A stretch of DNA of 64,000 bases from assembly GCF_900104845.1 (NCBI RefSeq), contig NZ_FNSR01000002.1, positions 1,798,001 through 1,862,000 on the forward strand. Direction: 5' to 3'. A program made the position numbers and the translations under genes. The DNA is from Paraburkholderia caballeronis (lineage in GTDB: Bacteria; Pseudomonadota; Gammaproteobacteria; Burkholderiales; Burkholderiaceae). The stretch's first letter is position 1, and each line of letters begins with the position of its first letter. This document shows, one piece after another, positions 4,742 through 19,791 of the stretch. Under the pieces are notes generated by a model. The model did not search any database and was not told the DNA's origin. It saw only the letters and a program-made list of their open reading frames with translations.

Positions 4742-5250
4742 TTAGGTAACCTTCGCATGTTTCGGTAGGAACTCGACGAGCGCTTGCCGATCCTTGCGTT
4801 TCACAATCTCGATGATCGTGTCGTGTTCAGCCAGATTCCTCTCGAACTGGATATCCAGTTCTTCCGGGGTCGACTCGGCCTCCAGCTTGTACAAATGGAC
4901 GAGCAGGCGGCGGACATGTCGATGCGTGGACCGGGCAAAGTCATAGAAGAAGCTGTTTCCCACCGCCTGGCTCATGCGCATATGGAACTTCTCGTTCATC
5001 GCAGTGATATTGAGAAATGCCCGGTCGCCAGTGCCGGCACCTCTTCGATCCGTCGCTGCCGCGGAACTAACTGTAGACACTCGAAGAGCCAGGTGCGGGT
5101 GAGGCGACCGAAGTCAGCATCGAACTGATGCCCGAGCAGATCTTCGACGACGCGCTGCGTCAATTGAACACGCAGCGGCACAAGTGAGGTAAAGCTGGCG
5201 ATGGTGCGACGCGCGTCGCTGTATTGCGTCGTCTCGTGTCCCCGGCACAC
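4742..5250 (-). pseudogene. Broken GntR-family regulator (FCD domain only)
   Basis: Two overlapping minus-strand frames together recreate a C-terminal FCD effector domain. The upstream part carries LGHQFDADFGRLTRTWLFEC; the downstream part carries NEKFHMRMSQAVGNSFFYDF, then HVRRLLVHL and LAEHDTIIEIV. A frameshift near 5000-5080 separates them, and the N-terminal winged helix is absent. No functional regulator can be made. It lies directly upstream of the catabolic operon, where a regulator gene would be expected, while an intact GntR regulator sits further in at 10849. Confidence 0.75.
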
Positions 5251-5296
5251 ATCGCAACGACCGACGGATAGTCGACCAAAAACCGATTAGTTTACA

Positions 5297-5405: not shown

Positions 5406-5909
5406 GTGCTCTACGGTACCCATACGGCTTCGACCCGAACCAGCATGCTTCCAGCAAGAATCAACCGTGAATCGGTACGTGAGGCGATCGGCGAATATGC
5501 TGATCCCGCCGCAACTTTCGACGAGCGTTCCGACATCTATCGCGAACTCATCGGCTTTGTGCCGCCACGTATCGAAGCTCGCTTCGCCGTCACCGGCGCG
5601 CTTGATCCGGCCATCGTCGATCTTCAAGAAAAAGTGCGAACGCACGCGATGTATCCGAAGAACTTCGATGTGAAAACCGCACAGTTGATGCTGTTCGGCA
5701 TGCTGCTGATGGACGGCAGCGATGCGGCGGTGCTGCACGCGATCGCGGCGCGTCGTGCTGGGGCGAGCTGGGGAGAAATGCAGGATACGGTTAATCTCTG
5801 TTTCCTGTTTCGCGGTATGTCCGCAGCCAACAAGGGAGCCGAAATCATGGGCAATATCGCCCACCGCGAGGTCACCGAGGCGGCAACGAAAAACGGCGCT
5901 TCGGCTTGA
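5406..5909 (+). CDS. Carboxymuconolactone decarboxylase-family protein
   Basis: This 167-residue all-helical protein has the CMD/AhpD-fold core (YPKNFDVKTAQLMLFGMLL, AAVLHAIAARRAGASWGEM, then NLCFLFRGMSAANKG). The CxxC redox motif of AhpD is absent, which favours a decarboxylase-like or structural role over peroxidase activity. GGAAGG lies 5 bases before the GTG at 5406; an ATG at 5445 is the alternative start. It is the first gene of the aminomuconate operon. In the known 3-hydroxyanthranilate route an amidohydrolase-type ACMS decarboxylase acts here, and none is present in the window. Replacement by this protein is my inference. Confidence 0.7.
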   Translation: MLYGTHTASTRTSMLPARINRESVREAIGEYADPAATFDERSDIYRELIGFVPPRIEARFAVTGALDPAIVDLQEKVRTHAMYPKNFDVKTAQLMLFGMLLMDGSDAAVLHAIAARRAGASWGEMQDTVNLCFLFRGMSAANKGAEIMGNIAHREVTEAATKNGASA

Positions 5910-5923
5910 CCCGGCACTCCGTC

Positions 5924-6715
5924 ATGACGATCCAACCGTTCAATATCGAGGCGCTCGGCGCGCGATTACATCACGCGCTCGAAACCGCCTGCGCCATCGA
6001 TCCGCTGACCGTCGAATTTCCGCAGTTGTCGGTGAGTGATGCGTACGCCATCCAGCATGCGATGATCGCTCACCGCACGGCGCGGGGCGATAGGGTGGTC
6101 GGAAAAAAAATCGGCATTACCAGCAAAGTCGTCATGGACATGCTAGATGTCGACCAGCCCGATTTCGGCGTGCTGCTTTCCAGCATGTCGTACGACGACG
6201 GCGCGTCGATTTCCGCCAGCCGTTTCATCGCGCCGCGTGCGGAAGGCGAAATTGCGTTTGTTATCGCGGATGACATCCATGGTCCCGGTCTCACGCCAGC
6301 CGATCTGCTCGCGAGCATCGCCTACGCGGTACCGTGTTTCGAGATCGTCGACTCGCGGATTCGCGACTGGAAGATCAGGATCGCGGACACGATTGCCGAC
6401 AACGGATCGTCCGGCGCATTTGTTCTGGGCGACGCGATTGCGCCACTCAACGCGCTCGATTTGCGCTGCGCCGGCATGGTGCTCGAAAAGAACGGCCAGA
6501 TCATCGGCACCGGCGCAGGCGCTGCCGCGCTTGGCGACCCGCTCGCCAGCATAACGTGGCTCGCTAATCAACTCGGTGAACTCGGCATCGGCCTGAAGGC
6601 GGGCGAAGTCGTTTTATCCGGCTCGCTGTCGATCATGTTTCCGGTCGCTGCCGGCGACAGCATCGCGATGACAATCAGCGGGCTCGGTTCGTGCCGGGCC
6701 CGCTTTGTCGAATGA
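5924..6715 (+). CDS. 2-oxopent-4-enoate hydratase
   Basis: This enzyme adds water to 2-oxopent-4-enoate to give 4-hydroxy-2-oxovalerate in the meta-cleavage lower pathway. The sequence follows the DmpE/MhpD/NbaH pattern: GKKIGITSKVVMDML, QPDFGVL, the metal-site segment PRAEGEIAFVI, PCFEIVDSRIRDWKI, DTIADN and LKAGEVVLSGS. The length of 263 residues is normal. I chose the ATG at 5924; an in-frame TTG at 5906 overlaps the upstream stop. It is the second gene of the operon, followed by its paralogue and usual partner, the decarboxylase. Confidence 0.88.
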   Translation: MTIQPFNIEALGARLHHALETACAIDPLTVEFPQLSVSDAYAIQHAMIAHRTARGDRVVGKKIGITSKVVMDMLDVDQPDFGVLLSSMSYDDGASISASRFIAPRAEGEIAFVIADDIHGPGLTPADLLASIAYAVPCFEIVDSRIRDWKIRIADTIADNGSSGAFVLGDAIAPLNALDLRCAGMVLEKNGQIIGTGAGAAALGDPLASITWLANQLGELGIGLKAGEVVLSGSLSIMFPVAAGDSIAMTISGLGSCRARFVE

Positions 6716-6725
6716 GGATTTCATC

Positions 6726-7526
6726 ATGAATCAATCCACGACTCTCGATGAGACAAGTGTCGGACGACTCGCCGCGTTGCTCCACGACGCCGAAACGAAC
6801 GCGCGCGAAGTTACGAAAATCACTGACGCTTTGCCGGATCTCACACAGGAAGACGCCTACGCGATTCAACACGAAATTCTGCGTATTCGTCTGGCCAACG
6901 GCGAGCGGCTGTCGGGCCGGAAAATGGGGCTGACCTCATTCGCGAAAATGAAGCAGATGGGCGTAGAACGCCCAATTTATGGCTTTCTGACCGACCGCAG
7001 TTGCCTCGTCGACGGTGCGGAGTTGCCGATGCGAGACCTGATCCATCCCAAGGTCGAAGCCGAAATTTCGGTCATCACGTCGCACGAACTGCGCGGCCCC
7101 GGCTGTACGGCAACCGAAGCGCTGGCGGCAATCGATATGGTGTATGCGTCGATTGAAGTTATCGACTCGCGCTATCGCGATTTTCGTTTCGACCTTGTGA
7201 GCGTGATCGCAGACAACACGTCGGCCGCCCGCTACGTAATCGGTGCGAAAGGCGCGCCTGCGGCGCTGCTCGATCTGCGCAATCTCGGTGTGGTGCTCGA
7301 ACGGAACGGCGAAGTGCTCGCCACCGGTGCCGGCGCTGCGGTGCTGGGCCATCCGGCGGCAAGCCTCGCGGCGCTGGTCAATATGCTCGCAGCGGAAAAC
7401 CAGTCCCTGCCGGCCGGCACGCTCGTGATGACCGGCGGCGTAACAGAAGCATTTCGCGTCGATGCTGGCGACACGGTGCATGTCACGGTACAAGGTGTCG
7501 GCACCGCCGAATTGAAGCTCGTTTAA
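6726..7526 (+). CDS. 4-oxalocrotonate decarboxylase
   Basis: This enzyme decarboxylates 4-oxalocrotonate (2-oxohex-3-enedioate) to 2-oxopent-4-enoate. It is a paralogue of the preceding hydratase but has the DmpH/NbaG features: KMGLTSFAKMKQMGV, RPIYGFLTDR, HPKVEAEISVI, IEVIDSRYRDFRFDL, and GAGAAVLGHPAASLAALVNM near the C-terminus. It is 266 residues long. The ATG at 6726 is preceded by GAGGA about 8 bases upstream, within the end of the hydratase gene. Hydratase and decarboxylase form a complex in related pathways, which fits the tight spacing. Confidence 0.88.
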   Translation: MNQSTTLDETSVGRLAALLHDAETNAREVTKITDALPDLTQEDAYAIQHEILRIRLANGERLSGRKMGLTSFAKMKQMGVERPIYGFLTDRSCLVDGAELPMRDLIHPKVEAEISVITSHELRGPGCTATEALAAIDMVYASIEVIDSRYRDFRFDLVSVIADNTSAARYVIGAKGAPAALLDLRNLGVVLERNGEVLATGAGAAVLGHPAASLAALVNMLAAENQSLPAGTLVMTGGVTEAFRVDAGDTVHVTVQGVGTAELKLV

Positions 7527-7551
7527 CTGCGTCCCATCAGGAATTCAAAAG

Positions 7552-7746
7552 ATGCCTATCGCCCGTATTTCGATCATGGATGGCCGAACCGATGAACAGA
7601 AAGCAGCGTTGATTGCTGCTGTCACCGAAGCGATTCATCGGAGCGTCGGTGCACCCCGCGAAAACATTCGCGTTTTGCTCGACGAAGTTCCCCGCACGCA
7701 GTGGGGGATCGCCGGCAAGACCGCGCATGAACTCGACAGACACTGA
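7552..7746 (+). CDS. 4-oxalocrotonate tautomerase-family protein
   Basis: This 64-residue protein begins MPIARISIMDGRTDEQKAAL. After loss of the initiator Met, Pro-1 is the general base of the tautomerase superfamily. Arginines near positions 11-12 and 39 of the canonical enzyme are only partly recognisable (GRTDEQK, PRENIRVLLDE). In this pathway it would interconvert enol and keto forms of 2-hydroxymuconate/4-oxalocrotonate produced after deamination. It sits 25 bases after the decarboxylase, inside the operon. Confidence 0.85.
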   Translation: MPIARISIMDGRTDEQKAALIAAVTEAIHRSVGAPRENIRVLLDEVPRTQWGIAGKTAHELDRH

Positions 7747-7786
7747 GATCGGCGGCTAAGCGACGTATAGAAACGCTGGAGTGCTA

Positions 7787-8737
7787 GTGAAACACAGTCG
7801 AAAAACGAAGGTGGCGATTATCGGTTCCGGCAATATCGGCACCGATCTGATGATCAAGATCATGCGCAACAGCGAGTACCTCGAAATGGGGGCAATGGTC
7901 GGCATCGATCCAGATTCAGATGGTCTCGCGCGAGCGGCGCGTCTCGGCGTCGCGACGACGCATGAAGGTGTGCAAGGTCTCATCGACCTGCCGGTATTCG
8001 AGGACATCGAAGTCGTATTCGATGCGACTTCCGCGGGAGCCCACATAAAAAACGACGCGCTCCTGCGGCAGTACAAGCCCGATATACGCATGATCGATCT
8101 CACGCCTGCTGCAATCGGCCCGTATTGCGTACCGGTCGTGAACCTGGATAAGACCGTTGCCGAACGGAACGTCAACATGGTCACGTGCGGTGGTCAGGCA
8201 ACCATTCCGATGGTCGCGGCAGTGTCGGCGGTCGCGAAAGTCCACTACGCGGAAATCGTCGCGTCGATCAGCAGCAAATCCGCGGGTCCGGGCACACGCG
8301 CCAATATTGACGAGTTTACCGAAACGACTTCAAAGGCGATCGAGACGGTCGGTGGCGCGGCGAAGGGCAAAGCGGTCATCGTGCTGAATCCGGCCGAGCC
8401 CCCGCTGATCATGCGCGACACGGTTTATGTATTGTCGGAGCTCGCCGATCAGGCAAAAGTCGAAGCGTCGATCGATGCGATGGTGCGTGCGGTAAGCGCG
8501 TACGTTCCGGGTTATCGCCTGAAACAGAATGTCCAGTTCGATGTGATTACCGAACACGCACCGCTGATCATTCCAGGCCTTGGCGAGTTCAGCGGCACGA
8601 AAACCTCTGTGTTCCTCGAAGTCGAAGGTGCCGCGCATTATCTGCCCGCGTACGCAGGTAATCTCGACATCATGACTTCCGCCGCGCTCGCGACAGCCGA
8701 GCGCATGGCGCGGACGTCGCTTGGCGTTGGAGTTTAG
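7787..8737 (+). CDS. Acetaldehyde dehydrogenase (acylating)
   Basis: This enzyme converts the acetaldehyde released by the aldolase to acetyl-CoA with NAD+ and CoA. Features: an N-terminal Rossmann motif [11 protein letters not shown] (about residues 10-20), the catalytic Cys in [13 protein letters not shown], and the DmpF/MhpF-type [20 protein letters not shown] segment. It is about 316 residues, the family length. GGAG lies 5 bases upstream of the GTG at 7787; a GTG at 7781 is possible. The stop is followed two bases later by the aldolase start, as expected because the two proteins form a channelling complex. Confidence 0.92.
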
Positions 8738-8739
8738 GC

Positions 8740-9756
8740 ATGAGTAAAAAACTCTATATTTCCGACGTGACGCTGCGCGACGGCAGCCACGCGATCCGCC
8801 ATCAGTACTCGATCAAGAACGTGCAGGACATCGCGCGCGCGCTCGACGCCGCGAAGGTGGACAGCATCGAGGTCGCGCACGGCGACGGCCTGCAGGGGTC
8901 GAGCTTCAACTACGGCTTTGGCGCGCACAGCGACCTGGAATGGATCGGCGCGGTGGCTGACGTGGTGAAGCACGCGAAGATCGCGACGCTGCTGCTGCCG
9001 GGCATCGGCACGATCCACGACCTGAAGGCCGCGTACGACGCGGGCGCGCGCGTGGTGCGGGTGGCGACGCACTGCACCGAAGCGGACATCTCGAAGCAGC
9101 ACATCGAGTACGCGCGCGAACTTGGGATGGATACCGTCGGTTTCCTGATGATGAGCCACATGACGACGCCGGAGAAGCTGGCGGTCGAGGCGAAGAAGAT
9201 GGAGAGCTACGGCGCGACCTGCATCTACGTGGTGGACTCGGGCGGCGCGCTGAGCATGAACGACGTGCGCGACCGGTTCCGCGCGTTCAAGAGCGTGCTC
9301 AAGCCCGAGACCGAAACCGGCATGCACGCGCACCACAACCTGTCGCTGGGCGTGGCGAACTCGATCGTCGCGGTGGAAGAGGGTTGCGACCGGATCGACG
9401 CGTCGCTGGCGGGGATGGGCGCGGGCGCGGGCAACGCGCCGCTCGAAGTGTTCATCGCGGCGGCGGAGCGCCTCGGCTGGAATCACGGCACCGATCTGTA
9501 CACGCTGATGGACGCGGCCGACGACATCGTGCGTCCGTTGCAGGACCGGCCGGTGCGGGTGGATCGCGAGACGCTGGCGCTCGGTTATGCGGGCGTGTAT
9601 TCGAGCTTCCTGCGGCACTCGGAGGTGGCGGCGAAGAAGTACGGCCTCAAGACGGTGGACATTCTCGTCGAACTGGGTAAGCGCCGCATGGTCGGCGGGC
9701 AGGAAGATATGATCGTGGATGTCGCGCTCGATCTTCTCAAACGCGCGGCCCAGTGA
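8740..9756 (+). CDS. 4-hydroxy-2-oxovalerate aldolase
   Basis: This enzyme cleaves 4-hydroxy-2-oxovalerate to pyruvate and acetaldehyde and hands the latter to the dehydrogenase encoded just upstream. It is a 338-residue TIM barrel of the DmpG/MhpE type with [12 protein letters not shown] (metal Asp and catalytic His), [13 protein letters not shown] (metal His pair) and the C-terminal [14 protein letters not shown] region. Codon use is notable: from about 8770 to 9660 nearly every third position is G or C, far above the genes on both sides, while the first and last parts resemble the neighbours. This suggests replacement of the middle by recombination with a host-type copy. Confidence 0.93.
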
Positions 9757-9785
9757 TCACTCGAATAATCTAATGGAGTTGAGCA

Positions 9786-10190
9786 ATGCCCAAGATTCTC
9801 GTTCAGTCATCCCAGGCCCCCGTTACCGGGTTCACCGACGCAAGCAAGCCGTCGCCGCTCGCCCAAGCCATTCGTGCGGGTGATTTTCTGTACGTATCGG
9901 GGCAGGGTCCGCTCGACCCGGTAACCCGTAAGGTCACAGCGGACGATATCGCGACACAAACGCGTCAAGTGCTCGCGAATCTCGCTGCCGTGCTCGAAGC
10001 CGGCGGCGCGACTATCGCACACGTGGTTAACATGCGCGTTTGCTTGCGCAACACTTCGGATTTTCCGGTGTTCAACGAGACGTTCCGTGAAGTGCTGAAC
10101 GGCGAAAAAGTGACGCGTACTTGCACGGGGGGCACACCGCATCGCGCGGGCGTGCTGGTTGAGATCGATTGTGTCGCCTACCTCGGCTGA
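9786..10190 (+). CDS. 2-aminomuconate deaminase (RidA/YjgF family)
   Basis: This 134-residue RidA-fold protein has SPLAQAIRAGDFLYVSGQGP, the central QTRQVLANLAAVLEAGGA helix and a C-terminal VLVEIDCVAYLG strand. Within a cluster encoding an aminomuconate-semialdehyde-type dehydrogenase and an oxalocrotonate decarboxylase, the RidA member is the 2-aminomuconate deaminase (AmnD/NbaF type), giving 4-oxalocrotonate and ammonia. It lies between the aldolase and the ring-cleavage gene, 11 bases before the latter. Generic imine deaminase activity cannot be excluded from sequence. Confidence 0.8.
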   Translation: MPKILVQSSQAPVTGFTDASKPSPLAQAIRAGDFLYVSGQGPLDPVTRKVTADDIATQTRQVLANLAAVLEAGGATIAHVVNMRVCLRNTSDFPVFNETFREVLNGEKVTRTCTGGTPHRAGVLVEIDCVAYLG

Positions 10191-10201
10191 TCGGAGGCAA
10201 T

Positions 10202-10756
10202 ATGTACAAGATGCCCATCGTCAGCATTAAGGATCGCGTCGATAGCCTGAATGAAAGCGGCAAGTACGTCAGCGTGATGTGGCAACAGCCAGAATCGCTG
10301 GTATTCGTCGCTCGTGGCCGCGCTTATCGCAGCGAATTCCATATCAATCCAACCGACGAAGTGATGGTCCAGATCAAGGGCGAAATGCATCTGCACTATC
10401 GCACGCCCGAGGGCAAGGAAGAGATCGCAATCATTCCAGAAGGCTCGGCCATTCACACGCCGGCAGGCATTCCGCATTCGCCGCGTTTCCCGCCCGACGC
10501 CTACGCGATGATTCTCGAACGGGCGCGCAGGGAAGGCGAGGTGGATATATTCCAGTGGTATTGCCCGGAGTGCGATCACCTGCTGCACGAAGAACACTTT
10601 ACGGTCGGCAACTACGGTGTCGATCCGGTCGCGCAAGCCTATCGCAACTTCTACGACAATGTAGCGTATCGCACCTGCAAAGGCTGCGGTTACGTGATGC
10701 CGAATGCGCTGGCCGAAGCAGAAGCTGCAGAGCAAAAGAGCGCCGGTGCGGAATGA
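10202..10756 (+). CDS. Cupin ring-cleavage dioxygenase, 3-hydroxyanthranilate 3,4-dioxygenase family
   Basis: This 184-residue cupin has the extradiol 3HAO layout: His and Glu ligands in EFHINPTDEVMVQIKGEM (about residues 45-58), a third His in AGIPHSPRFPP, and C-terminal rubredoxin-like cysteine pairs WYCPECDH and CKGCG. It should open an ortho-aminophenol ring using Fe(II). The N-terminal 30 residues differ from the classical enzyme, and no ACMS decarboxylase accompanies it. The substrate could therefore be 3-hydroxyanthranilate or a decarboxylated analogue such as 2-aminophenol. It is the last gene of the first operon and convergent with the GntR gene. Confidence 0.85.
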   Translation: MYKMPIVSIKDRVDSLNESGKYVSVMWQQPESLVFVARGRAYRSEFHINPTDEVMVQIKGEMHLHYRTPEGKEEIAIIPEGSAIHTPAGIPHSPRFPPDAYAMILERARREGEVDIFQWYCPECDHLLHEEHFTVGNYGVDPVAQAYRNFYDNVAYRTCKGCGYVMPNALAEAEAAEQKSAGAE

Positions 10757-10848
10757 CATGGACGTCAGGCGCAAGACCGGCTGGCTCTGCCCGCGGTGCG
10801 GGACCACGCAACGCGGCGTACCGGATAGCGCGCTGACTACCGATGTTT

Positions 10849-11547
10849 TCAGGTGGCGGGCACCGAAGGTTTCCGCTTGCGCAACGCTGCCGCCACATTC
10901 ATACCGGTACGTTCGATATGCTCCTTGAGCAAAGCACAAGCCTTGTCGGCATCACGCGCAAGCGCGGCAGAGCAGATATTCGCATGTTCATCAGCGACCG
11001 ACGGATCGAGGGAGTTGCCTTCAAGGAACATGCGCCGATAACGATCATTCAAATCGTGCAGGATCGAGCAGAAATGCAATACCAGCGGCATGCCGCATGC
11101 CGCCAACAAGTCATGATGAAGCGTACGGTGCGTGATTTCCCAGTCGTCGAGATCGACGTTCTTCGCACCAATACGTTTGTTGAGCTGGTAGATGCCGGCG
11201 ACGATCGAGCTTTCCCATGCGTTATCGCCGAGCCTTATCGATTCGCGCAGCGCGAACGTTTCGAGCATCGTGCGCAAACGCGTCACTTCAACCAGATTCG
11301 GTTCGGAAACCGGTGCGACACGATACCCACGATTGCTCTCGAGGCTAACGAACCCTTCGGCAGCGAGGCGCGACAGCGCCTCCCGCAACGGACTCAGCGA
11401 AACGCCGAGATCGGCACGCAGATCTTCCAGGTTGATCTTTTTGCCCGGCGGCATCGCGCCACTGGTGATCTGCATACGCAGCGTGTTGGCAACCGCCGAG
11501 GACAGCGTCTGACCCGCGCCTGCGCCTGAATTAAGCATTTCCGCCAT
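10849..11547 (-). CDS. GntR-family (FadR/FCD) transcriptional regulator of the catabolic island
   Basis: This 232-residue regulator has a winged helix at residues about 15-80 (DLRADLGVSLSPLREALSRL, FVSLESNRGYRV) and an FCD effector domain with the His-rich metal site (HRTLHHDLLAA, DEHANICSAAL, LLKEHIERTG). GGAG lies upstream of the ATG. It is divergent from the semialdehyde dehydrogenase operon; the shared intergenic region carries the perfect palindrome ATAATCGATTAT. The same core occurs before the 5406 operon and between the divergent transporter and dioxygenase genes. I infer that it represses all three units and responds to a pathway intermediate. Confidence 0.9.
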   Translation of the reverse strand: MAEMLNSGAGAGQTLSSAVANTLRMQITSGAMPPGKKINLEDLRADLGVSLSPLREALSRLAAEGFVSLESNRGYRVAPVSEPNLVEVTRLRTMLETFALRESIRLGDNAWESSIVAGIYQLNKRIGAKNVDLDDWEITHRTLHHDLLAACGMPLVLHFCSILHDLNDRYRRMFLEGNSLDPSVADEHANICSAALARDADKACALLKEHIERTGMNVAAALRKRKPSVPAT

Positions 11548-11594
11548 AAAGGTCCACTCCTGGATACAAATTTAGTCTTCGGGATTATAGACCA

Positions 11595-11603
11595 AAAATC
11601 GAC
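11595..11603. promoter_or_regulatory. Half-operator AAAATCGAC
   Basis: A half-site matching the palindrome at 5297-5308 lies 18 bases from the full palindrome at 11613, about two helical turns centre to centre. Confidence 0.35.
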
Positions 11604-11612
11604 TAAATTTGG

Positions 11613-11624
11613 ATAATCGATTAT
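11613..11624. promoter_or_regulatory. GntR operator palindrome ATAATCGATTAT
   Basis: This perfect 12-bp palindrome sits in the divergent region between the GntR gene and the dehydrogenase operon, in AT-rich DNA suited to promoters. It shares its core with 5297-5308, 5348-5372 and 19718-19725. Confidence 0.65.
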
Positions 11625-11660
11625 ATTTCGTTGTACCTTATTTGAGACGTGGAGAGTTTG

Positions 11661-13124
11661 ATGGCGATTGAGACGCTTAACTTCATCGGCGGTGAATTCG
11701 TTCCTGCCGCATCCGGACGCTTGTTCGACAATCGTAGCCCTGTCGACAACTCGCTGATTTCGCGTGTGCACGAAGCCGGTCAGGCTGAAGTCGATGCGGC
11801 AGTTGCAGCAGCCAGAGCTGCGCTGCACGGCCCTTGGGGGAGCATGTCGGTACAGAACCGCGCGGACATGCTCTATGCGGTGGCGGAAGAAATCAATCTG
11901 CGTTTCGACGACTTCCTGCAGGCGGAAGTTGCCGATACCGGGAAGCCGAGGTCTCTCGCGTCACACCTCGATATCCCGCGCGGTGCCGCAAACTTCAAGG
12001 TTTTTGCCGATACAGTGAAGAGCGCTGGCGCAGAGTTTTTCGAAATGTCGACGCCGGATGGTGGGACAGCGCTGAACTATGTGCTACGCCGTCCGAAGGG
12101 GGTGATCGCCGTGGTGTGCCCCTGGAATCTGCCACTGCTGCTGATGACGTGGAAGGTTGCCCCGGCGATCGCGTGCGGCAATACGGTGGTCGTCAAACCG
12201 TCCGAGGAAACGCCATCGACCGCAACGCTTCTCGGCGAAGTGATGAACAAGGTCGGCGTACCGGCGGGCGTATACAACGTTGTGCATGGTTTCGGTCCCG
12301 ACTCCGCAGGCGAATTCCTGACAAAACATGCGGGTGTCAACGCGATTACCTTTACCGGTGAGACAGGAACTGGAGCGAAGATCCTGGAAACGGCCGCGAG
12401 CGGCATCAAGGCCACGTCGATGGAGCTCGGCGGCAAAAATCCGTCGATTGTGTTCGCGGATTGCGACCTCGAAAATGCACTTGAAGTCACCAGCCGCGCG
12501 GTGTTCGCCAACTGCGGGCAGGTGTGCCTCGGCACCGAACGTGTGTACGTCGAACGTCCGTTGTTCGACGAATTCGTCCAGCGCTTCGGCGAAATCGCAC
12601 GTACCACGAAGCCGGGTCACCCTGACGATGCGAATGGCAAGATGGGGCCGCTGATTTCGCTGGGTCACCGCGAAAAGGTGCTGTCGTACTACACACGCGC
12701 GAAAGAAGAAGGTGCGATGATCGTGGCCGGCGGCGGGATTCCAGTTATGCCTGCGGAACTGGCGGAAGGCGCGTGGATCGAGCCGACCGTATGGACCGGA
12801 CTGCCGGAAAGCAGCGCCGTCGTCCGAGAGGAAATTTTCGGCCCCTGCTGCCATATCGCTCCATTTGACACCGAAGAGGAAGTCGTTGCGCTTGCTAACG
12901 ACACACGTTACGGGCTCGCTGCTGCAGTACACACGCGCAATTTGCAGCGTGCACATCGGATTGCTGCGCAGCTCGAGGTCGGTACCTGCTGGATCAACGC
13001 ATGGTTCCTGCGCGATCTGCGTACGCCGTTCGGTGGCGCGAAGATGTCGGGCATCGGCCGCGAGGGCGGTTTGCATTCCTTGGAGTTCTATACCGAACTG
13101 CGCAATGTTTGTGTGAAGCTGTAA
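11661..13124 (+). CDS. 2-aminomuconate 6-semialdehyde dehydrogenase-type aldehyde dehydrogenase
   Basis: This 487-residue NAD-dependent aldehyde dehydrogenase has the catalytic Glu in SMELGGKNPS, the catalytic Cys in NCGQVCLGTERVY, and the C-terminal GGAKMSGIGREGGLHSLEFY typical of the 2-hydroxy- and 2-aminomuconic semialdehyde group. In this cluster it oxidises the ring-fission aldehyde to 2-aminomuconate. The ATG at 11661 is preceded by GGAGAG; an in-frame GTG lies at 11649. It is the first gene of the second plus-strand unit, divergent from the GntR gene, and is followed by an MBL-fold hydrolase. Confidence 0.88.
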   Translation: MAIETLNFIGGEFVPAASGRLFDNRSPVDNSLISRVHEAGQAEVDAAVAAARAALHGPWGSMSVQNRADMLYAVAEEINLRFDDFLQAEVADTGKPRSLASHLDIPRGAANFKVFADTVKSAGAEFFEMSTPDGGTALNYVLRRPKGVIAVVCPWNLPLLLMTWKVAPAIACGNTVVVKPSEETPSTATLLGEVMNKVGVPAGVYNVVHGFGPDSAGEFLTKHAGVNAITFTGETGTGAKILETAASGIKATSMELGGKNPSIVFADCDLENALEVTSRAVFANCGQVCLGTERVYVERPLFDEFVQRFGEIARTTKPGHPDDANGKMGPLISLGHREKVLSYYTRAKEEGAMIVAGGGIPVMPAELAEGAWIEPTVWTGLPESSAVVREEIFGPCCHIAPFDTEEEVVALANDTRYGLAAAVHTRNLQRAHRIAAQLEVGTCWINAWFLRDLRTPFGGAKMSGIGREGGLHSLEFYTELRNVCVKL

Positions 13125-13187: not shown

Positions 13188-14069
13188 ATGGACATGCAAC
13201 TGGGTTCCGCTCGAATTACGCGAATCGAAGACTATCACGGGCCGGGTCTCGCTCCGGAGTTCATGTTTCCGGCGATCCAGAAGCAGATGTGGCACGATTC
13301 GCCTGAATGGGCCCGTCGCTTTGTCGATTTACCGGAAAATCGCCTGCTGACCAGCATCCATAGCTGGCTCGTGCGTACGCCGCATCATACGATATTGATC
13401 GACAGTTGCATTGGCAACCACAAACAGCGTCCGTCGATTCCGCATTTTCACATGCGCGATGTGCCATGGCTCGAACGTCTGCGTGCCGCCAGCGTTCACC
13501 CCGGAGATGTAGATTTCGTGATGTGCACGCACTTGCACGCCGATCACATCGGCTGGAATACGCAGTTGAAGGATGGTCGCTGGATACCCACGTTTCCAAA
13601 TGCGAAATATCTTTTTAACCGCCGGGAATTCGACCGTTGGGATTCACGCCGCCCGGATTATGCGGCCAGACCTATCAACGACAATGCGTTCGAGGACAGT
13701 CTTTTGCCCGTGCTCGAAGCCGGTCAGGTCCAATTCGTCGAGGACGGTTATAGCGTCGACGATATTCTGACCGTGGAATCCGCGCCCGGCCATACGGCAG
13801 GCAACGTGAAGATTCGTGTGCGCTCGGGAGGAAGCGAAGGGATGTTTGCTGGCGACACAATTCACCATCCACTGCAACTTCACTATCCGGATCTATGCTC
13901 GCATTTCGACGAGGATCCAGGCGTCGCCCTCCAGACTCGTATCCGGATGCTGAACGATTGCGCGGAACGCGGGTCCCTGCTGATGCCAACGCACTTTGCA
14001 GCGCCTTTCTGCTGCCGCATCGCCGGACACCACGCTAACGGCGGATATCTGCCGGACTGGAACGTCTGA
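13188..14069 (+). CDS. MBL-fold metallo-hydrolase (lactonase-like), copy 1
   Basis: This 293-residue protein has the di-metal motif HLHADHIGWNT, the bridging Asp in MFAGDTIHHPLQL and a distal His in LMPTHFAAP. The arrangement SIHSWLVRTPHHTILIDSC ahead of the motif is typical of the N-acyl homoserine lactonase group. It is closely related to the product at 14168-15067 and the two genes are convergent. Likely activity is hydrolysis of a lactone, cyclic carbamate or ester; the substrate is unknown. It follows the semialdehyde dehydrogenase on the same strand, and so is probably part of the pathway. Confidence 0.85.
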   Translation: MDMQLGSARITRIEDYHGPGLAPEFMFPAIQKQMWHDSPEWARRFVDLPENRLLTSIHSWLVRTPHHTILIDSCIGNHKQRPSIPHFHMRDVPWLERLRAASVHPGDVDFVMCTHLHADHIGWNTQLKDGRWIPTFPNAKYLFNRREFDRWDSRRPDYAARPINDNAFEDSLLPVLEAGQVQFVEDGYSVDDILTVESAPGHTAGNVKIRVRSGGSEGMFAGDTIHHPLQLHYPDLCSHFDEDPGVALQTRIRMLNDCAERGSLLMPTHFAAPFCCRIAGHHANGGYLPDWNV

Positions 14070-14112
14070 ACATCGTAAGTCGACCGCTGCCCGATCCGGG
14101 TGGCGTGAAAGC

Positions 14113-14134
14113 GCCGCCCGGTCATTCGGGCGGC
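14113..14134. terminator. Bidirectional hairpin between convergent MBL genes
   Basis: GCCGCCCG and CGGGCGGC form a perfect 8-bp stem with loop GTCATT, placed between two convergent stop codons. T-runs are absent on both sides. Confidence 0.5.
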
Positions 14135-14167
14135 CCGTCCCGTAGAAACAGAACTGCTACGAGCTGA

Positions 14168-15067
14168 TCAGCAGTTACTGCAACATACGAATTTCGGACG
14201 GAACGCCGCGCCTTCCGCTTCTACTTCTGCAACGTGCGGCGCAGCGAAGTGCGTGGGAAACAGCAGCGAACGTTTTTCCACGCAGCCTTCGAGCACTCTG
14301 CGGCGGGTCACCAGGGCCTCTTCTGGCCGCTCGCAGAAACGGGTATTCCATGTCGGCTCGTACAACTGAATCGGGTGATGAATCACATCGCCGCAAAATA
14401 CGCCGGACTTGCCCGCGTCGCTCAATTTCAGGATGATATGGCCAGGTGTATGGCCCGGCGCCGGTTCGACCAGCAGCTTGTCGTCGATTGCATGTGCCCC
14501 GTCCAGCAGCACCGCCTGGCCGCTCTGGATCACCGGTAGCACACTGTCGTCGTACACTGCCACACGGCCCGGATTCTGCGTACGCCGCTCACCGATAGAC
14601 GAATCCCAGTGTTCGTTCTCGATGCGGGAAAACAGATACTTCGCATTCGGAAACGTGGGCACCCAGCGACCGTCGACCAGTTGGGTATTCCAGCCCACGT
14701 GGTCGGTATGCAAGTGCGTGCACAGCACGATGTCTATGTCATCGGGCGAGGAACCGGCCGCTCGCAATCGTTCCAGAAACGGCACGTCGAGTTGATGGAA
14801 GCGGGGCAACCACGGCCGTTCCTTGTGATTTCCGGCGCAGCTATCGAGCAGGATCGTGTGCGTTCCGGTACGGATCAACCACGAATGATTGCTGGTGATC
14901 AGCTTGTCGTTGACCGGGTCGTAGTGCGTCGGCACCATCCACGGAAAATGCTGCGCGAAGCGCTCACGATCCAGTGCAGGCAGGAAGCTTCCAGCCGGAG
15001 TATCGTTCGGCCCGATTTGCTCTTCAATGCGCGTAACAGTGGTCGTTCCAATAAGCCAGGTCTGCAT
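14168..15067 (-). CDS. MBL-fold metallo-hydrolase (lactonase-like), copy 2
   Basis: This 299-residue paralogue of the copy at 13188 carries HLHTDHVGWNT, the bridging Asp in VFCGDVIHHPIQL, and LFPTHFAAPH. I chose the ATG at 15067 because AGGGAG lies 6 bases upstream and the paralogue starts at the same point (MQTWLIG versus MDMQLG). The C-terminus ends with a Cys-containing tail (FVCCSNC). It is the last gene of the minus-strand transporter operon, following the FAD oxidase by about 20 bases. Two similar hydrolases in opposite operons may act on successive or alternative ring forms of the same compound. Confidence 0.85.
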   Translation of the reverse strand: MQTWLIGTTTVTRIEEQIGPNDTPAGSFLPALDRERFAQHFPWMVPTHYDPVNDKLITSNHSWLIRTGTHTILLDSCAGNHKERPWLPRFHQLDVPFLERLRAAGSSPDDIDIVLCTHLHTDHVGWNTQLVDGRWVPTFPNAKYLFSRIENEHWDSSIGERRTQNPGRVAVYDDSVLPVIQSGQAVLLDGAHAIDDKLLVEPAPGHTPGHIILKLSDAGKSGVFCGDVIHHPIQLYEPTWNTRFCERPEEALVTRRRVLEGCVEKRSLLFPTHFAAPHVAEVEAEGAAFRPKFVCCSNC

Positions 15068-15086
15068 CGCTACTCCCTTATGAATT

Positions 15087-16418
15087 TCATTGCACTTTGC
15101 GTTCTTCACGGCGATCAAGCGCACCAAAGCCCATCGTCATGAGAGGCAAAAACCACGGCTTACCGGTATAGAACGGCAAAGTCGGGAAATTACCCTGCTC
15201 GAACACACAGGAGGATTCGTTGCCGCCACCAATGATCTTACGAGCAAGATGAAAACCCAGATAGTTCATCATCGCGACGCCGTTGCCGTTGCACCCTGCA
15301 ACGTAATACAGACCGTCTATCTGGCCGATGTGGGGCAGGCGGTCAAATGTGAACGCAACCTTGCAGCCCCACGCGTAGTCGATTCGCTTACCTGCGAGCA
15401 ACGGGAAGCTCCCGATCATCCGGCCGTAGAGTTTTTCGGCGGCTTCCTCGGGGGAAACCTCCGACGGCGCCGCGCGCCCGCCGTACAAAAAACGCGAACC
15501 GTCCGGCGTCCGACGGAAATACGCCATCAAGCGCCGGCTATCGGCGCCCGTGCGGTGGAATGGCACGACCTGATTGGCAAGTTCCTGCGGCAGACGCTCG
15601 GTAACGATGATATGGCTCGCAACAGGGATCACGCGGTTTCCGAGTGGCGACCCTTTCAGACGCATCGCTTGCGCGTTTGTCGTGACCGCGACAGACGTTG
15701 CCTGAATCGCTGCATCATCGGTCACCACGGTGAACTGCGATGGTCCTTGCCGATCCATACGGCGAACCGTGGTACGGTCTACAAGATGCACACCTGCTTC
15801 ACGGCACAACTTCAATAGCGCTTGCAGATAACGCGCAGGTTGCAGTTGACCGGAACGTGGAATGACCATCACACCATGAAAGCGATCAGAACCGATTTCC
15901 TCGTGCTGATCGCCACGTGTCACCATATAGGCGTTCGCGTCAAACAATCGGTTCGTCGCTTCCATCCGCTTTTCCAGAATTCCATAGTGTTCCGGCGTCG
16001 TCGCGCAGGTGAGGCGGCCATTCATGCGGAAGTCACAATCGATTGCATGCTTCGCGATGAAATCCTGCATGTGAATCAGCGATTGGAGCGCGCCGTGCGC
16101 GAGTTCGGGGACGCTGGGGCCTTTGTCGCCCGCCCATTTTCGCCAGCGCGTGACGGCGGCAAAATCGATACCGAAACTGACGCCGCCGCTATTGCGTGCG
16201 CTCGCGTTAAAGCCAAACTGGTCAGCTTCGAATACAACCACCTTGACGCCGTTGCGCGCGAGCTCCAATGCCGTCGCCAGCCCGGAAAATCCACCACCAA
16301 CTACCGCGACATCGTACGAACTCGACAACGAAGGACGCACTTCGTTCTGCGGCGGCGCTTCGTCCCACCAATACGGCCGCTGCGCGAAATCCTGGTTCGG
16401 CAGTGTGCTAGAAATCAT
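15087..16418 (-). CDS. FAD-dependent amine/amino-acid oxidase (DAO family)
   Basis: This 443-residue flavoprotein has the dinucleotide motif VAVVGGGFSGLATALELARNG near residue 40, then ASARNSGGVSFG, and a C-terminal FAD segment AGCNGNGVAMMNYLG. The layout follows the gamma-glutamylputrescine oxidase/glycine oxidase group, which oxidises primary or secondary amines to imines. A RidA-type deaminase is encoded directly upstream in the operon, a common pairing because RidA hydrolyses the imine. The substrate is presumably what the neighbouring ABC transporter imports or a derivative of it. Specificity cannot be read from sequence. Confidence 0.85.
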   Translation of the reverse strand: MISSTLPNQDFAQRPYWWDEAPPQNEVRPSLSSSYDVAVVGGGFSGLATALELARNGVKVVVFEADQFGFNASARNSGGVSFGIDFAAVTRWRKWAGDKGPSVPELAHGALQSLIHMQDFIAKHAIDCDFRMNGRLTCATTPEHYGILEKRMEATNRLFDANAYMVTRGDQHEEIGSDRFHGVMVIPRSGQLQPARYLQALLKLCREAGVHLVDRTTVRRMDRQGPSQFTVVTDDAAIQATSVAVTTNAQAMRLKGSPLGNRVIPVASHIIVTERLPQELANQVVPFHRTGADSRRLMAYFRRTPDGSRFLYGGRAAPSEVSPEEAAEKLYGRMIGSFPLLAGKRIDYAWGCKVAFTFDRLPHIGQIDGLYYVAGCNGNGVAMMNYLGFHLARKIIGGGNESSCVFEQGNFPTLPFYTGKPWFLPLMTMGFGALDRREERKVQ

Positions 16419-16445
16419 GCTGAGGGCTCCACAGTGAAGCGTGCG

Positions 16446-16865
16446 TTATTCGGTGACGTCGCGCTTTGCCGCGATAACTTCGACTTCCACGCGCAAATCG
16501 CGCTGAGCGAGTTGCGCGACGCCGAGCAGCGTCATTGCGGGGCGTGCATCGCCAAGATAGGGATTGCGCACGCGTGCGTAAGCGGGTTGCTCGCTCAGGT
16601 CGAGCATGTAGGTATTGATCTTGATGACATCGGCCATTGTCATGCCAGCCGCCTGCAACAGGATGACGAGGTTGTCATAGATGCGCTTCGTCTGCGCTTC
16701 GATACCTTGCTCGATCGTGCCGTCAGCCTGAGTCCCGACCAGGCCGCAGGTGTAGACGAAACGCGCACCGGGCTGCACCTCAATGGCGTGGCTCCACGGA
16801 CCGGGCGGCGGCCGCAGGAGCGGGCTGGAAATGGGGCGGAAAGTGAGGGCTGTCATAGGAGTCAC
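16446..16865 (-). CDS. RidA-family imine deaminase
   Basis: This 139-residue protein has the RidA pattern: PGPWSHAIEVQPGARFVYTCG, QTKRIYDNLVILLQAAGM, and the C-terminal RDLRVEVEVIAAK. It differs clearly from the deaminase at 9786, so the island carries two separate RidA proteins. Its position between the transporter permease and the FAD oxidase suggests removal of the reactive imine made by that oxidase. An in-frame ATG nine bases further in (16856) is an alternative start. Confidence 0.85.
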   Translation of the reverse strand: MTPMTALTFRPISSPLLRPPPGPWSHAIEVQPGARFVYTCGLVGTQADGTIEQGIEAQTKRIYDNLVILLQAAGMTMADVIKINTYMLDLSEQPAYARVRNPYLGDARPAMTLLGVAQLAQRDLRVEVEVIAAKRDVTE

Positions 16866-16883
16866 TCCAAACGTAACCAGAAA

Positions 16884-17723
16884 TCAGCGCGTTGTCCTTG
16901 CCGGACGCTTCCACGGAATCAGCATTTGTTCGAGTTTCACGATGCCGAGTTGAAGCAGATAACCGATCAGGGAAACGAGAATCAACGCGACGAACATGTC
17001 CCGAACCTCGAAGATCTGCCAGGAATGCCAGATGACGTAACCGAGTCCGTGGTTCGTGCCGAAGTTCTCCGCAATGATCACGACGATCAGCGCCATCCCC
17101 ATGCCGAGTTGAAAGCCAGTGAAAATGTACGGAACGGATGCGGGCAACGCAATCGTCCGGTACGTTTGCCAGCGGGTCGCGTGGAAGTTCTTCGCCACAT
17201 CGAGATAGATACGGTCGATATTTACGACGCCGGCGAGTGTGCTCATGAATACCTGAAAGAAAACGGCAATTGCGACGATGACCCATTTCGACGGATCGCC
17301 CAGACCGAAGATAAGCATTACCAGTGGGAAAAGCGCGATCTTTGGAATCGGGTAAATCGCAGAGATGATTGGTTGCAGGACGTTGCGCAGGGTTTTCGAA
17401 ATCCCCATTACAACGCCGAAAAACACCCCGGGGATCGCGCCGAGAAAGAAGCCGATCATCATCCGGCTGATCGTGTACCCGATGTCGATCCAAAGATCCG
17501 GCGTTGTGCTCATCGCGAAGAACTCTTCGATGATCGACGATGGCGACGGAAAAAACCGCGGGTCGAGCAGACCGACACGCACTAGTACTTCCCAGATCAG
17601 CAGCAGGAGCACGGGCGACGCAATCGCCATGAACCAGCCGCGCCCAATCAGTCCGTGCAAAAACGACTTTTTTCTGTCTTTGTCCGCGACGATCTTTACT
17701 TCAATCGAATTCAAGGTGCTCAT
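16884..17723 (-). CDS. ABC transporter permease (SsuC/TauC type)
   Basis: This 279-residue integral membrane protein has about six hydrophobic segments (for example PVLLLLIWEVLVRVGLL and WVIVAIAVFFQVFMSTLAG). The cytoplasmic loop PRTIALP-like sequence reads YRTIALPASVPYIFTGFQ and contacts the ATPase. Family members import sulfonates, taurine, nitrate or other small organic anions. The start at 17723 overlaps the ATPase stop by four bases (ATGA). The family suggests a small acidic aromatic or heterocyclic substrate in this context, but that is inference. Confidence 0.88.
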   Translation of the reverse strand: MSTLNSIEVKIVADKDRKKSFLHGLIGRGWFMAIASPVLLLLIWEVLVRVGLLDPRFFPSPSSIIEEFFAMSTTPDLWIDIGYTISRMMIGFFLGAIPGVFFGVVMGISKTLRNVLQPIISAIYPIPKIALFPLVMLIFGLGDPSKWVIVAIAVFFQVFMSTLAGVVNIDRIYLDVAKNFHATRWQTYRTIALPASVPYIFTGFQLGMGMALIVVIIAENFGTNHGLGYVIWHSWQIFEVRDMFVALILVSLIGYLLQLGIVKLEQMLIPWKRPARTTR

Positions 17724-18487: not shown

Positions 18488-18556
18488 TTCAGGGCGAGAA
18501 TTGGGCTCTACATTCCGACGCCCGATGCGCCGGTCCATGGAGCCGCGGTTAGTAAG

Positions 18557-19583: not shown

Positions 19584-19717
19584 TCTACTCCTGTCAAATG
19601 CGGCGACCAAAAGGTAATCATGTCCGGACGATCGTGCCCGCAAGAAAGGCCGCAATTGCGGCCTGCGTGTCCATCGAGGCTCATGCATCCCGGGTCACGG
19701 GGGCGCCCCAGGGAAAG

Positions 19718-19725
19718 AATCGATT
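19718..19725. promoter_or_regulatory. GntR operator core AATCGATT
   Basis: This 8-bp palindrome, extended on one side to AATCGATTTTT, lies between the divergent substrate-binding protein and dioxygenase genes. A related half-site AAAATCGC is at 19772-19779, near the dioxygenase start. Confidence 0.5.
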
Positions 19726-19791
19726 TTTGAAAATTGTATCGGTTTTCTCGGGGTTGTGTGCTTAAATAAAAAAAATCGCTAAGGAGGAAGA

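What the first reader, a model, noticed from the sequence alone, without database searches (positions are those of the whole stretch)
5406..13124. Complete 2-aminomuconate meta pathway without an ACMS decarboxylase
Seen: 3HAO-family cupin, aminomuconate-semialdehyde-type dehydrogenase, RidA deaminase, oxalocrotonate decarboxylase, tautomerase, hydratase, aldolase and acylating dehydrogenase. Known: the nba pathway for 3-hydroxyanthranilate needs an amidohydrolase ACMS decarboxylase between ring cleavage and the dehydrogenase. Inferred: either the CMD-family protein encoded first in the operon does this step (a non-orthologous replacement), or the cupin cleaves an aminophenol that has no carboxyl group, which would be a new substrate for this fold.
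Basis: partly seen in the sequence, partly recalled or inferred. Interest (0 to 1): 0.85.

Follow-up and report, generated by a model that had tools for sequence, protein, structure and literature searches.

The report
Aminohydroxybenzoate pathway with substitute decarboxylase
A bacterium carries a gene set that probably breaks down an amino-hydroxy-benzoic acid, in which the usual carbon-dioxide-removing enzyme is missing and a small unrelated protein, seen beside other ring-opening enzymes in distant bacteria, may do its job.

Summary
The gene set is real: CMD-hydratase-decarboxylase-tautomerase-acetaldehyde dehydrogenase-aldolase-RidA-cupin, then a GntR/FCD regulator and the semialdehyde dehydrogenase. 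No ACMSD was found in the genome. The cupin is not an ordinary 3-hydroxyanthranilate dioxygenase: it misses both NCBIfam cut-offs and lies in a separate clade, where the carboxylate anchor Arg99 is Phe in 81 of 81 and three new Arg are invariant. The best match is the 4-amino-3-hydroxybenzoate route of Bordetella sp. 10d (monocupin, RidA-type deaminase, decarboxylation reported as non-enzymatic), so a new substrate for this fold is not needed; orthology to its AhdA could not be tested. What looks new is the CMD protein. Relatives lie with ring-cleavage genes of three unrelated folds in 17 of 28 loci examined. One operon copies the window's order with a catechol-2,3-dioxygenase-type gene in place of RidA-cupin, next to protocatechuate-forming genes. 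Most likely it decarboxylates 5-carboxy-2-hydroxymuconate 6-semialdehyde, elsewhere done by ACMSD-like enzymes. Decarboxylation before cleavage, or none by enzyme, are the main rivals. No activity is shown; function is inference.

The parts
5274..5290 (+). operator-like motif upstream of the CMD operon, shared 14 of 17 with 11590-11606
   Evidence: 1 of 150 shuffled promoter pairs reaches 14 of 17; pattern read from the two sites, so only suggestive
5445..5909 (+). [quoted passage not shown]
5924..6715 (+). 2-oxopent-4-enoate hydratase-like
   Evidence: TIGR03220 364 bits (cut-off 409)
6726..7526 (+). 4-oxalocrotonate decarboxylase
   Evidence: TIGR03218 363 bits, over cut-off; start
7552..7746 (+). 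4-oxalocrotonate tautomerase-like
   Evidence: PF01361 65 bits
7781..8737 (+). acetaldehyde dehydrogenase (acylating)
   Evidence: TIGR03215 over cut-off
8740..9756 (+). 4-hydroxy-2-oxovalerate aldolase
   Evidence: TIGR03217 over cut-off
9786..10190 (+). RidA-type deaminase
   Evidence: within 300 bp of the cupin in 52 of 80 related loci
10202..10756 (+). 3HAO-fold cupin ring-cleavage dioxygenase of a separate clade (R99 to F)
10849..11547 (-). GntR/FCD regulator
11590..11606 (+). operator-like motif between the regulator and dehydrogenase genes
11661..13124 (+). 2-hydroxymuconate / 2-aminomuconate 6-semialdehyde dehydrogenase
   Evidence: nearest solved relatives are AMSDH, 609-638 bits; next 378
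13188..14069 (+). metallo-beta-lactamase-fold hydrolase, possibly upper pathway
   Evidence: counterpart in L052
14168..20799 (.). associated island: second MBL-fold gene, DAO-type FAD oxidase, second RidA, NMT1-type ABC transporter, TauD/TfdA dioxygenase
   Evidence: the same genes lie around RidA-cupin in L052

Best explanation
The operon encodes a meta-cleavage route for an aminohydroxybenzoate, most likely 4-amino-3-hydroxybenzoate, down to pyruvate and acetyl-CoA. Proposed steps: (1) the cupin opens the ring to 2-amino-5-carboxymuconate 6-semialdehyde; (2) the neighbouring RidA protein deaminates it to 5-carboxy-2-hydroxymuconate 6-semialdehyde, the same compound that 2,3-cleavage of protocatechuate gives; (3) the CMD-family protein removes the carboxyl group that sits beside the aldehyde (a beta-oxo acid), giving 2-hydroxymuconate 6-semialdehyde; (4) the dehydrogenase, tautomerase, oxalocrotonate decarboxylase, hydratase, aldolase and acylating dehydrogenase finish. 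The CMD protein thus takes the place of the ACMSD-like decarboxylases (NbaD, PraH, OpaD). Shown: the genes, no ACMSD found, the residue changes and the gene neighbourhoods. Inferred: the substrate, the order of steps 2 and 3, and every activity.
For: (a) CMD relatives lie in the same cluster as ring-cleavage genes of three unrelated folds: cupin (window, L006, L007, L009, L057), catechol-2,3-dioxygenase type (L117, L118, L120, L139) and LigB type (L130, L132, L133, L140, L168, L169, L170, L175): 17 of the 28 CMD loci whose surroundings I examined; 5 of the 17 were found through the cupin. (b) L139 repeats the window's order CMD-HYD-DEC-TAU-ADA-ALD, then a C23O-type gene instead of RidA-cupin, a GntR gene, a 3-dehydroshikimate dehydratase-like gene (QuiC model 410 bits, below its 1200 cut-off), AroQ and a shikimate-dehydrogenase-like gene. 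Thermus L117 has PobA, and L118 a QuiC-like gene (540 bits) with PobA about 13 kb on. Both suggest protocatechuate. (c) OpaD, which makes 2-hydroxymuconate semialdehyde from a 3-carboxy product, is 30% identical to NbaD (ACMSD) and 28% to PraH (PMC6362003, passages); I infer that all three are amidohydrolases. Profiles of two amidohydrolase groups (ACMSD-like, AMID9) find nothing in 16 of 16 CMD loci tested. (d) 22 of 80 cupin loci hold a decarboxylase-type gene (5 CMD, 5 ACMSD-like, 12 AMID9), none of them two kinds. (e) Genomes of the 5 ACMSD-like loci: 0 of 5 have CMD at E 1e-15. (f) Cupin R99 to F, new invariant R38, R40, R95, metal ligands kept. (g) PobA type near the cupin in 3 of 80 loci; PobA enzymes can make 4-amino-3-hydroxybenzoate from 4-aminobenzoate, wild types weakly (PMC10466732, passages). 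(h) 6 of 13 top-40 cupin clusters with contigs of at least 10 kb share a longest-contig length with a listed CMD cluster, 1 of 13 in ranks 41-120.
Against: No activity is shown. 11 of the 28 examined CMD loci have no ring-cleavage gene nearby; several are CMD plus GntR and a tricarboxylate-transporter gene, and L141, L174 and L179 have, by eye, a 2-pyrone-4,6-dicarboxylate-hydrolase-like amidohydrolase that my two profiles would miss. In 399 genomes of the order, own included, CMD is in 5 and the cupin in 3, sharing only the own genome. 58 of 80 cupin loci have no such decarboxylase gene in the held flanks. Genome-wide, CMD genomes are not free of distant ACMSD relatives: all 5 genomes of the cupin+CMD loci match the ACMSD-like query at E 1e-10 (three at about 1e-12 to 1e-14, those of L015 and L057 at about 1e-46, 33-35% identity), and 2 of 6 other CMD genomes do. 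3 of 12 AMID9 genomes also carry CMD. CMD/amidohydrolase exclusivity is kin-confounded and was not tested for significance. L007's CMD gene is split over two frames in that MAG. The C23O of L139 scores 317.7 on the catechol 2,3-dioxygenase model (cut-off 320.2), and Thermus C23O enzymes beside CMD group with ordinary catechol enzymes. Decarboxylation is reported as non-enzymatic in Bordetella 10d (PMC4539516, passage). No AhdA sequence could be compared. The AlphaFold model of CMD is poor (pLDDT 54, pTM 0.30).
Confidence: 0.52

Rival explanations
1. The CMD protein decarboxylates the aromatic acid before ring cleavage (4-amino-3-hydroxybenzoate to 2-aminophenol; in Thermus protocatechuate to catechol), and the cupin cleaves 2-aminophenol.
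For: Thermus C23O beside CMD passes the catechol 2,3-dioxygenase cut-off (345.6 against 320.2) and that of L139 nearly does (317.7); the Thermus ones group with ordinary catechol enzymes; the one AMID9 amidohydrolase compared with the PDB (L021) matches 5-carboxyvanillate decarboxylase (94 bits) better than ACMSD (72 bits); loss of Arg99 also fits a substrate without that carboxyl.
Against: The C23O enzymes of L139 and Embleya are split off together with those of four gallate-type clusters (SH-aLRT 100, unrooted 23-row quick tree), that is, with likely cleavers of carboxylated rings; three new invariant Arg in the cupin; cofactor-free decarboxylation of an aromatic acid by a CMD-type protein has no precedent known to me (recalled).
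Confidence: 0.19
2. 3-Hydroxyanthranilate pathway (nba type) in which the CMD protein decarboxylates ACMS.
For: The cupin is of the 3HAO family (PF06052 over cut-off); the nearest solved dehydrogenase is 2-aminomuconate semialdehyde dehydrogenase; a kynureninase is present elsewhere in the genome.
Against: R99 is lost in 81 of 81 and kept in 10 of 10 canonical enzymes; both NCBIfam 3HAO cut-offs missed; separate clade; CMD relatives occur with protocatechuate-type clusters.
Confidence: 0.1
3. No enzyme does the decarboxylation: as reported for Bordetella 10d it is spontaneous, and the CMD protein has another role (for example peroxidase-like or accessory).
For: Non-enzymatic step stated in PMC4539516 (passage, printed as carboxylation); 11 of 28 examined CMD loci lack a ring-cleavage gene; 58 of 80 cupin loci lack a decarboxylase-type gene in the held flanks.
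Against: Repeated coupling of CMD with unrelated ring cleavers; Y32, R46, E62, R65, Q80, H98, E111 and N129 invariant in 15 of 15 aligned members, no CXXC by eye.
Confidence: 0.19

Closest known systems
4-amino-3-hydroxybenzoate pathway of Bordetella sp. 10d (Orii 2006, Murakami 2004, Takenaka 2009: not read, cited through passages of PMC4539516 and PMC6449761)
   Same: Single-domain cupin ring cleaver, RidA-type deaminase, dehydrogenase-tautomerase-decarboxylase-hydratase lower route, no ACMSD needed
   Different: A CMD-family gene heads the operon here; decarboxylation there is reported as non-enzymatic; sequence orthology untested
nba 3-hydroxyanthranilate pathway (Pseudomonas fluorescens KU-7, recalled)
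   Same: Cupin of the same Pfam family, RidA, dehydrogenase and lower pathway
   Different: No NbaD amidohydrolase found; cupin lacks Arg99 and lies in another clade
Protocatechuate 2,3-cleavage pathway pra (Paenibacillus JJ-1b; Kasai 2009 not held)
   Same: Needs decarboxylation of 5-carboxy-2-hydroxymuconate 6-semialdehyde, then the same lower pathway
   Different: PraH is related to OpaD (28%), itself 30% to NbaD (PMC6362003); here a CMD-family protein and a cupin ring cleaver
4-carboxymuconolactone decarboxylase PcaC / PF02627
   Same: Same Pfam family at low score; PF02627 aligned over residues 70-147
   Different: 20.4 bits against a 23-bit cut-off; lies in meta- not ortho-cleavage clusters

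Membership tests
3-hydroxyanthranilate 3,4-dioxygenase (NbaC/HAAO) | NCBIfam equivalog cut-offs (TIGR03037 146, NF009763 220 bits) | tested here: not met
   111.8 and 122.7 bits
3-hydroxyanthranilate 3,4-dioxygenase (NbaC/HAAO) | His-Glu-His iron ligands and four-Cys second metal site (roles recalled) | tested here: met
   H47, E53, H92, C121, C124, C159, C162
3-hydroxyanthranilate 3,4-dioxygenase (NbaC/HAAO) | Arg99 carboxylate anchor (role: PMC11650718 passage) | tested here: not met
   F96 in 81 of 81 of the clade, R in 10 of 10 canonical
nba pathway | ACMSD amidohydrolase | tested here: not met
   none found in the own genome
4-amino-3-hydroxybenzoate pathway (Bordetella 10d) | monocupin ring cleaver and RidA-type deaminase | tested here: met
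   9786-10756
4-amino-3-hydroxybenzoate pathway (Bordetella 10d) | cupin orthologous to AhdA | not testable with these tools
   no AhdA sequence at hand; the deaminase paper is not held; no such name among the 120 listed of 1642 homologues
4-amino-3-hydroxybenzoate pathway (Bordetella 10d) | enzyme activity on 4-amino-3-hydroxybenzoate | not testable with these tools
   needs bench work
ACMSD-like amidohydrolase decarboxylases (NbaD, PraH, OpaD) | Amidohydro_2 protein in the cluster | tested here: not met
   none of the genome's 5 Amidohydro_2 genes lies in the window
CMD family PF02627 | Pfam gathering score 23 | tested here: inconclusive
   20.4 bits for the window protein; 24.0, 28.9 and 37.2 for three relatives
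CMD family PF02627 | all-helical CMD/AhpD fold (recalled) | tested here: inconclusive
   all-helical model but pLDDT 54, pTM 0.30

The most novel reading that the evidence does not exclude
A branch of the CMD family is a further, unrelated enzyme type for decarboxylating carboxylated meta-cleavage products, found in Pseudomonadota, Deinococcota and Actinomycetota. It acts as an exchangeable connector between ring cleavers of three folds (3HAO-type cupin, catechol-2,3-dioxygenase type, LigB type) and one lower pathway, in place of ACMSD/PraH/OpaD-type enzymes.
Probability: 0.47. Interest if true: 0.75.

Novelty: new variant of a known kind. Interest (0 to 1): 0.6.

Why it matters
If true, many genes annotated only as 'carboxymuconolactone decarboxylase family' would gain a function, and pathways for aminobenzoates and protocatechuate that look incomplete for lack of an amidohydrolase would be complete. 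It would be a clear case of non-orthologous replacement in aromatic catabolism, testable with two spectrophotometric assays. It also marks a clade of '3-hydroxyanthranilate dioxygenases' that is probably misnamed: 34 of the 120 listed homologues bear that name.

Tried and rejected
ACMSD elsewhere in the genome: sought with PF04909, PDB comparison of two of the five hits and an ACMSD-like query; rejected. Mutual exclusion of CMD and amidohydrolase as proof: no shared locus, but counts are small, kin-confounded, and distant ACMSD relatives occur in CMD genomes; used only as support. I expected PraH to be a CMD-family protein; PMC6362003 shows it is related to OpaD/NbaD. C23O naming as evidence for protocatechuate: the names given are catechol 2,3-dioxygenase or VOC/glyoxalase type, so naming does not help; the 23-row tree splits CMD-linked C23O enzymes between two sides. 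A single-sequence scan of genome contigs with the cupin gave no relative; the alignment scan did (best 80 of 162 kept). Shared operator motif: reached by 1 of 150 shuffles, modest. The own PobA homologue about 30 kb upstream is 49-53% identical to four cupin-linked PobAs and 49% to one of a protocatechuate-type cluster: no proof. CMD structure: low confidence, no fold search made; no structure job for the cupin was accepted. Literature: I saw no report of a CMD-family decarboxylase in meta-cleavage; 4 of the 11 papers were opened, and only the held open-licence library was searched. From recall, CmtD of the p-cumate pathway is yet another decarboxylase type; not checked. Odds of the best reading were lowered slightly (0.55 to 0.52) after re-reading.

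Papers: passages only were seen of PMC6449761, PMC4539516, PMC7118221, PMC12455638, PMC10306065, PMC8879955, PMC6460240, PMC6362003, PMC10269927, PMC7946887, PMC11650718, PMC10466732 and PMC4019311; all others are recalled or seen as search listings.

Full report
What is there. The window carries an intact operon CMD 5445-5909, hydratase 5924-6715, 4-oxalocrotonate decarboxylase 6726-7526, tautomerase 7552-7746, acylating acetaldehyde dehydrogenase 7781-8737, aldolase 8740-9756, RidA 9786-10190 and cupin 10202-10756. A divergent GntR/FCD regulator (10849-11547, minus) and the semialdehyde dehydrogenase (11661-13124) follow. The two promoter regions share a 14-of-17 match, reached by 1 of 150 shuffled pairs, which mildly supports one regulon. 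The window lies on the second of three contigs of a 7.1-Mb genome.

No ACMSD found. Five Amidohydro_2 genes exist in the genome, none in the window. The best match has only Amidohydrolase 2 and 2-pyrone-4,6-dicarboxylate-hydrolase type PDB relatives, and the fourth has uncharacterised or predicted ones. The other three were classed by eye from their sequences (two lactonase-like, one dihydroorotase-like). An ACMSD-like protein from a relative (L052, 197 bits to human ACMSD) finds nothing better than E 0.04.

The cupin is a separate clade. It misses both NCBIfam 3HAO cut-offs and is the only PF06052 match in the genome. In a tree of 92 rows the clade is split from canonical enzymes by a long branch with support 100/100 (bootstrap not fully settled; 112 sequences, thinned by me among the canonical ones). 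In an alignment of 81 clade members and 10 canonical enzymes (one divergent row, L129, set aside) the iron ligands, R43, E106 and the four Cys are kept (C162 in 80 of 81). Arg99 becomes Phe in 81 of 81, and Arg is new and invariant at 38, 40 and 95 (Gly, Pro and Gln in 10 of 10 canonical). Arg99 anchors a carboxylate of the 3HAO product (PMC11650718, passage). I read this as a carboxylate held at another place; that is inference.

Neighbours of the cupin. Of 80 related loci (the best 80 of 162), RidA lies within 300 bp in 52. A CMD gene is held in 5, an ACMSD-like gene in 5, another amidohydrolase (AMID9) in 12, PobA type in 3, LigB in 5, an MBL-fold gene in 18. No locus has two of the three decarboxylase kinds, and 58 have none (36 of the 80 loci are held with 20 kb or less, so absences are soft). 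The window's nearest kin L006, L007 and L009 have CMD-RidA-cupin in a row (L007's CMD is split over two frames), and L057, elsewhere in the tree, has cupin-CMD-RidA. The fifth, L015, has its CMD gene about 5.6 kb away on the other strand, 41% identical to the window's. 6 of 13 top-40 cupin clusters with contigs of at least 10 kb share an exact longest-contig length with one of the 120 listed CMD clusters, against 1 of 13 in ranks 41-120, which suggests linkage in metagenomes.

Genome level. In 50 of the 80 loci (49 genomes), CMD matches at E 1e-15 in 16 genomes, 13 of them below 1e-40; 0 of 5 with an ACMSD-like gene and 3 of 12 with AMID9 have one. Against this, in 399 genomes of the order, own included, CMD is in 5 and the cupin in 3, and only the own genome has both. 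And distant relatives of the ACMSD-like protein do occur in CMD genomes: of 17 genomes searched, all 5 of the cupin+CMD loci match at E 1e-10 (L006, L007, L009 at about 1e-12 to 1e-14, L015 and L057 at about 1e-46, 33-35% identity), as do 2 of 6 other CMD genomes. True ACMSD-like copies (83-100% identity) were in the four control genomes only.

Neighbours of CMD relatives. In Thermus thermophilus JL-18 the CMD gene overlaps a catechol-2,3-dioxygenase-type gene and lies beside a lower pathway, Rieske genes and PobA. In T. oshimai it lies beside the same type of gene and near a QuiC-like gene and PobA. In the actinomycete Embleya it directly precedes such a gene. In G683, a genome of the window's class, the operon is CMD-HYD-DEC-TAU-ADA-ALD-C23O-GntR-QuiC-like-AroQ-AroE-like: the window's own order with only the ring cleaver exchanged. 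LigB-type genes lie in the CMD cluster in L130, L132, L133, L140, L168, L169, L170 and L175. In all, 17 of 28 CMD loci examined have a ring-cleavage gene in the cluster (5 of the 17 were found through the cupin and are not independent); 11 do not (L015, L119, L131, L141, L171-L174, L176, L177, L179). Sampled: the 6 cupin-linked loci with the window, 4 of 9 plasmid records, 4 of 4 foreign genomes, 3 of 3, and 11 unlinked copies among the 25 matching rows. The two amidohydrolase profiles find nothing in 16 of 16 loci tested; L141, L174 and L179 have, by eye, a 2-pyrone-4,6-dicarboxylate-hydrolase-like gene that these profiles miss.

Interpretation. A ring carrying a carboxyl group must lose it before the C6 lower pathway. 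For protocatechuate cleaved at 2,3 the compound is 5-carboxy-2-hydroxymuconate 6-semialdehyde. The known decarboxylases for this and sister compounds (PraH, OpaD, NbaD) are related to one another (PMC6362003, passages), hence ACMSD-like amidohydrolases (my inference). 4-Amino-3-hydroxybenzoate is the amino analogue of protocatechuate: cupin cleavage and RidA deamination give the very same compound (Bordetella 10d, PMC4539516 and PMC6449761 passages). That one compound explains why the same CMD gene and lower pathway go with C23O-type and RidA-cupin ring cleavers, and it points to 4-amino-3-hydroxybenzoate rather than 3-hydroxyanthranilate. The carboxyl is beta to the aldehyde, so decarboxylation is chemically easy, which fits both the reported non-enzymatic step and a small cofactor-free enzyme (inference).

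Limits. The CMD protein scores below the Pfam cut-off; across contexts Y32, R46, E62, R65, Q80, H98, E111 and N129 are invariant in 15 of 15 aligned members, but the predicted model is too poor to judge. The Thermus C23O enzymes beside CMD group with ordinary catechol enzymes, while those of G683 and Embleya fall with enzymes of gallate-type clusters in an unrooted quick tree, so decarboxylation before cleavage remains possible. AhdA itself could not be compared. Nothing here shows an enzyme activity.

Verdict. The non-orthologous replacement idea is supported in a corrected form; the idea of a new substrate for the fold is not needed.

Noticed in passing
L182:6980-7972, L183:7007-7957, L184:6983-7951, L185:10016-10996: Genes labelled catechol 2,3-dioxygenase or VOC family lie with LigK-type aldolase, 4-oxalomesaconate tautomerase or PIG-L-type genes: probably gallate-type clusters with a VOC-fold ring cleaver.
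   Followed up: partly
L006:552-7041, L007:6098-12504, L009:6221-12498: Rieske oxygenase, glutamine-synthetase-like and GATase-like genes surround CMD-RidA-cupin, resembling the gamma-glutamylation set of aniline degradation (comparison recalled); possible upper pathway for an aromatic amine.
   Followed up: partly
window 13188-20799 and L052:5700-15060: An island of two MBL-fold genes, DAO-type oxidase, second RidA, NMT1-type ABC transporter and TauD dioxygenase occurs in both, with CMD in one and an ACMSD-like gene in the other.
   Followed up: partly
9 of 80 cupin loci, e.g. L033, L039, L041, L042: An MBL-fold hydrolase gene lies within 1 kb of the cupin; hydrolysis of a benzoxazolinone-like precursor is one idea, untested.
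   Followed up: no
L011:5700-8100: A canonical 3HAO (HSPQRP), a RidA-like and an ACMSD-like gene (116 bits) lie directly before a second RidA-cupin pair of the new clade.
   Followed up: partly
G000:C2:1772556-1773713: A PobA-type hydroxylase (522 bits, just below the 539 cut-off) lies about 30 kb before the operon.
   Followed up: partly
window 4742-5080 and 1883-2197: A frame that looks like the C-terminal part of an FCD-type regulator and a transposase-like short frame lie before the operon (read by eye).
   Followed up: no
L119:9001-9300: A shortened CMD gene on a Hydrogenophaga plasmid lies directly after an IS1071 transposase gene.
   Followed up: no
L007:9116-9524: The CMD gene beside RidA-cupin is split over two frames in this MAG; damage or a sequencing error, not resolved.
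   Followed up: no
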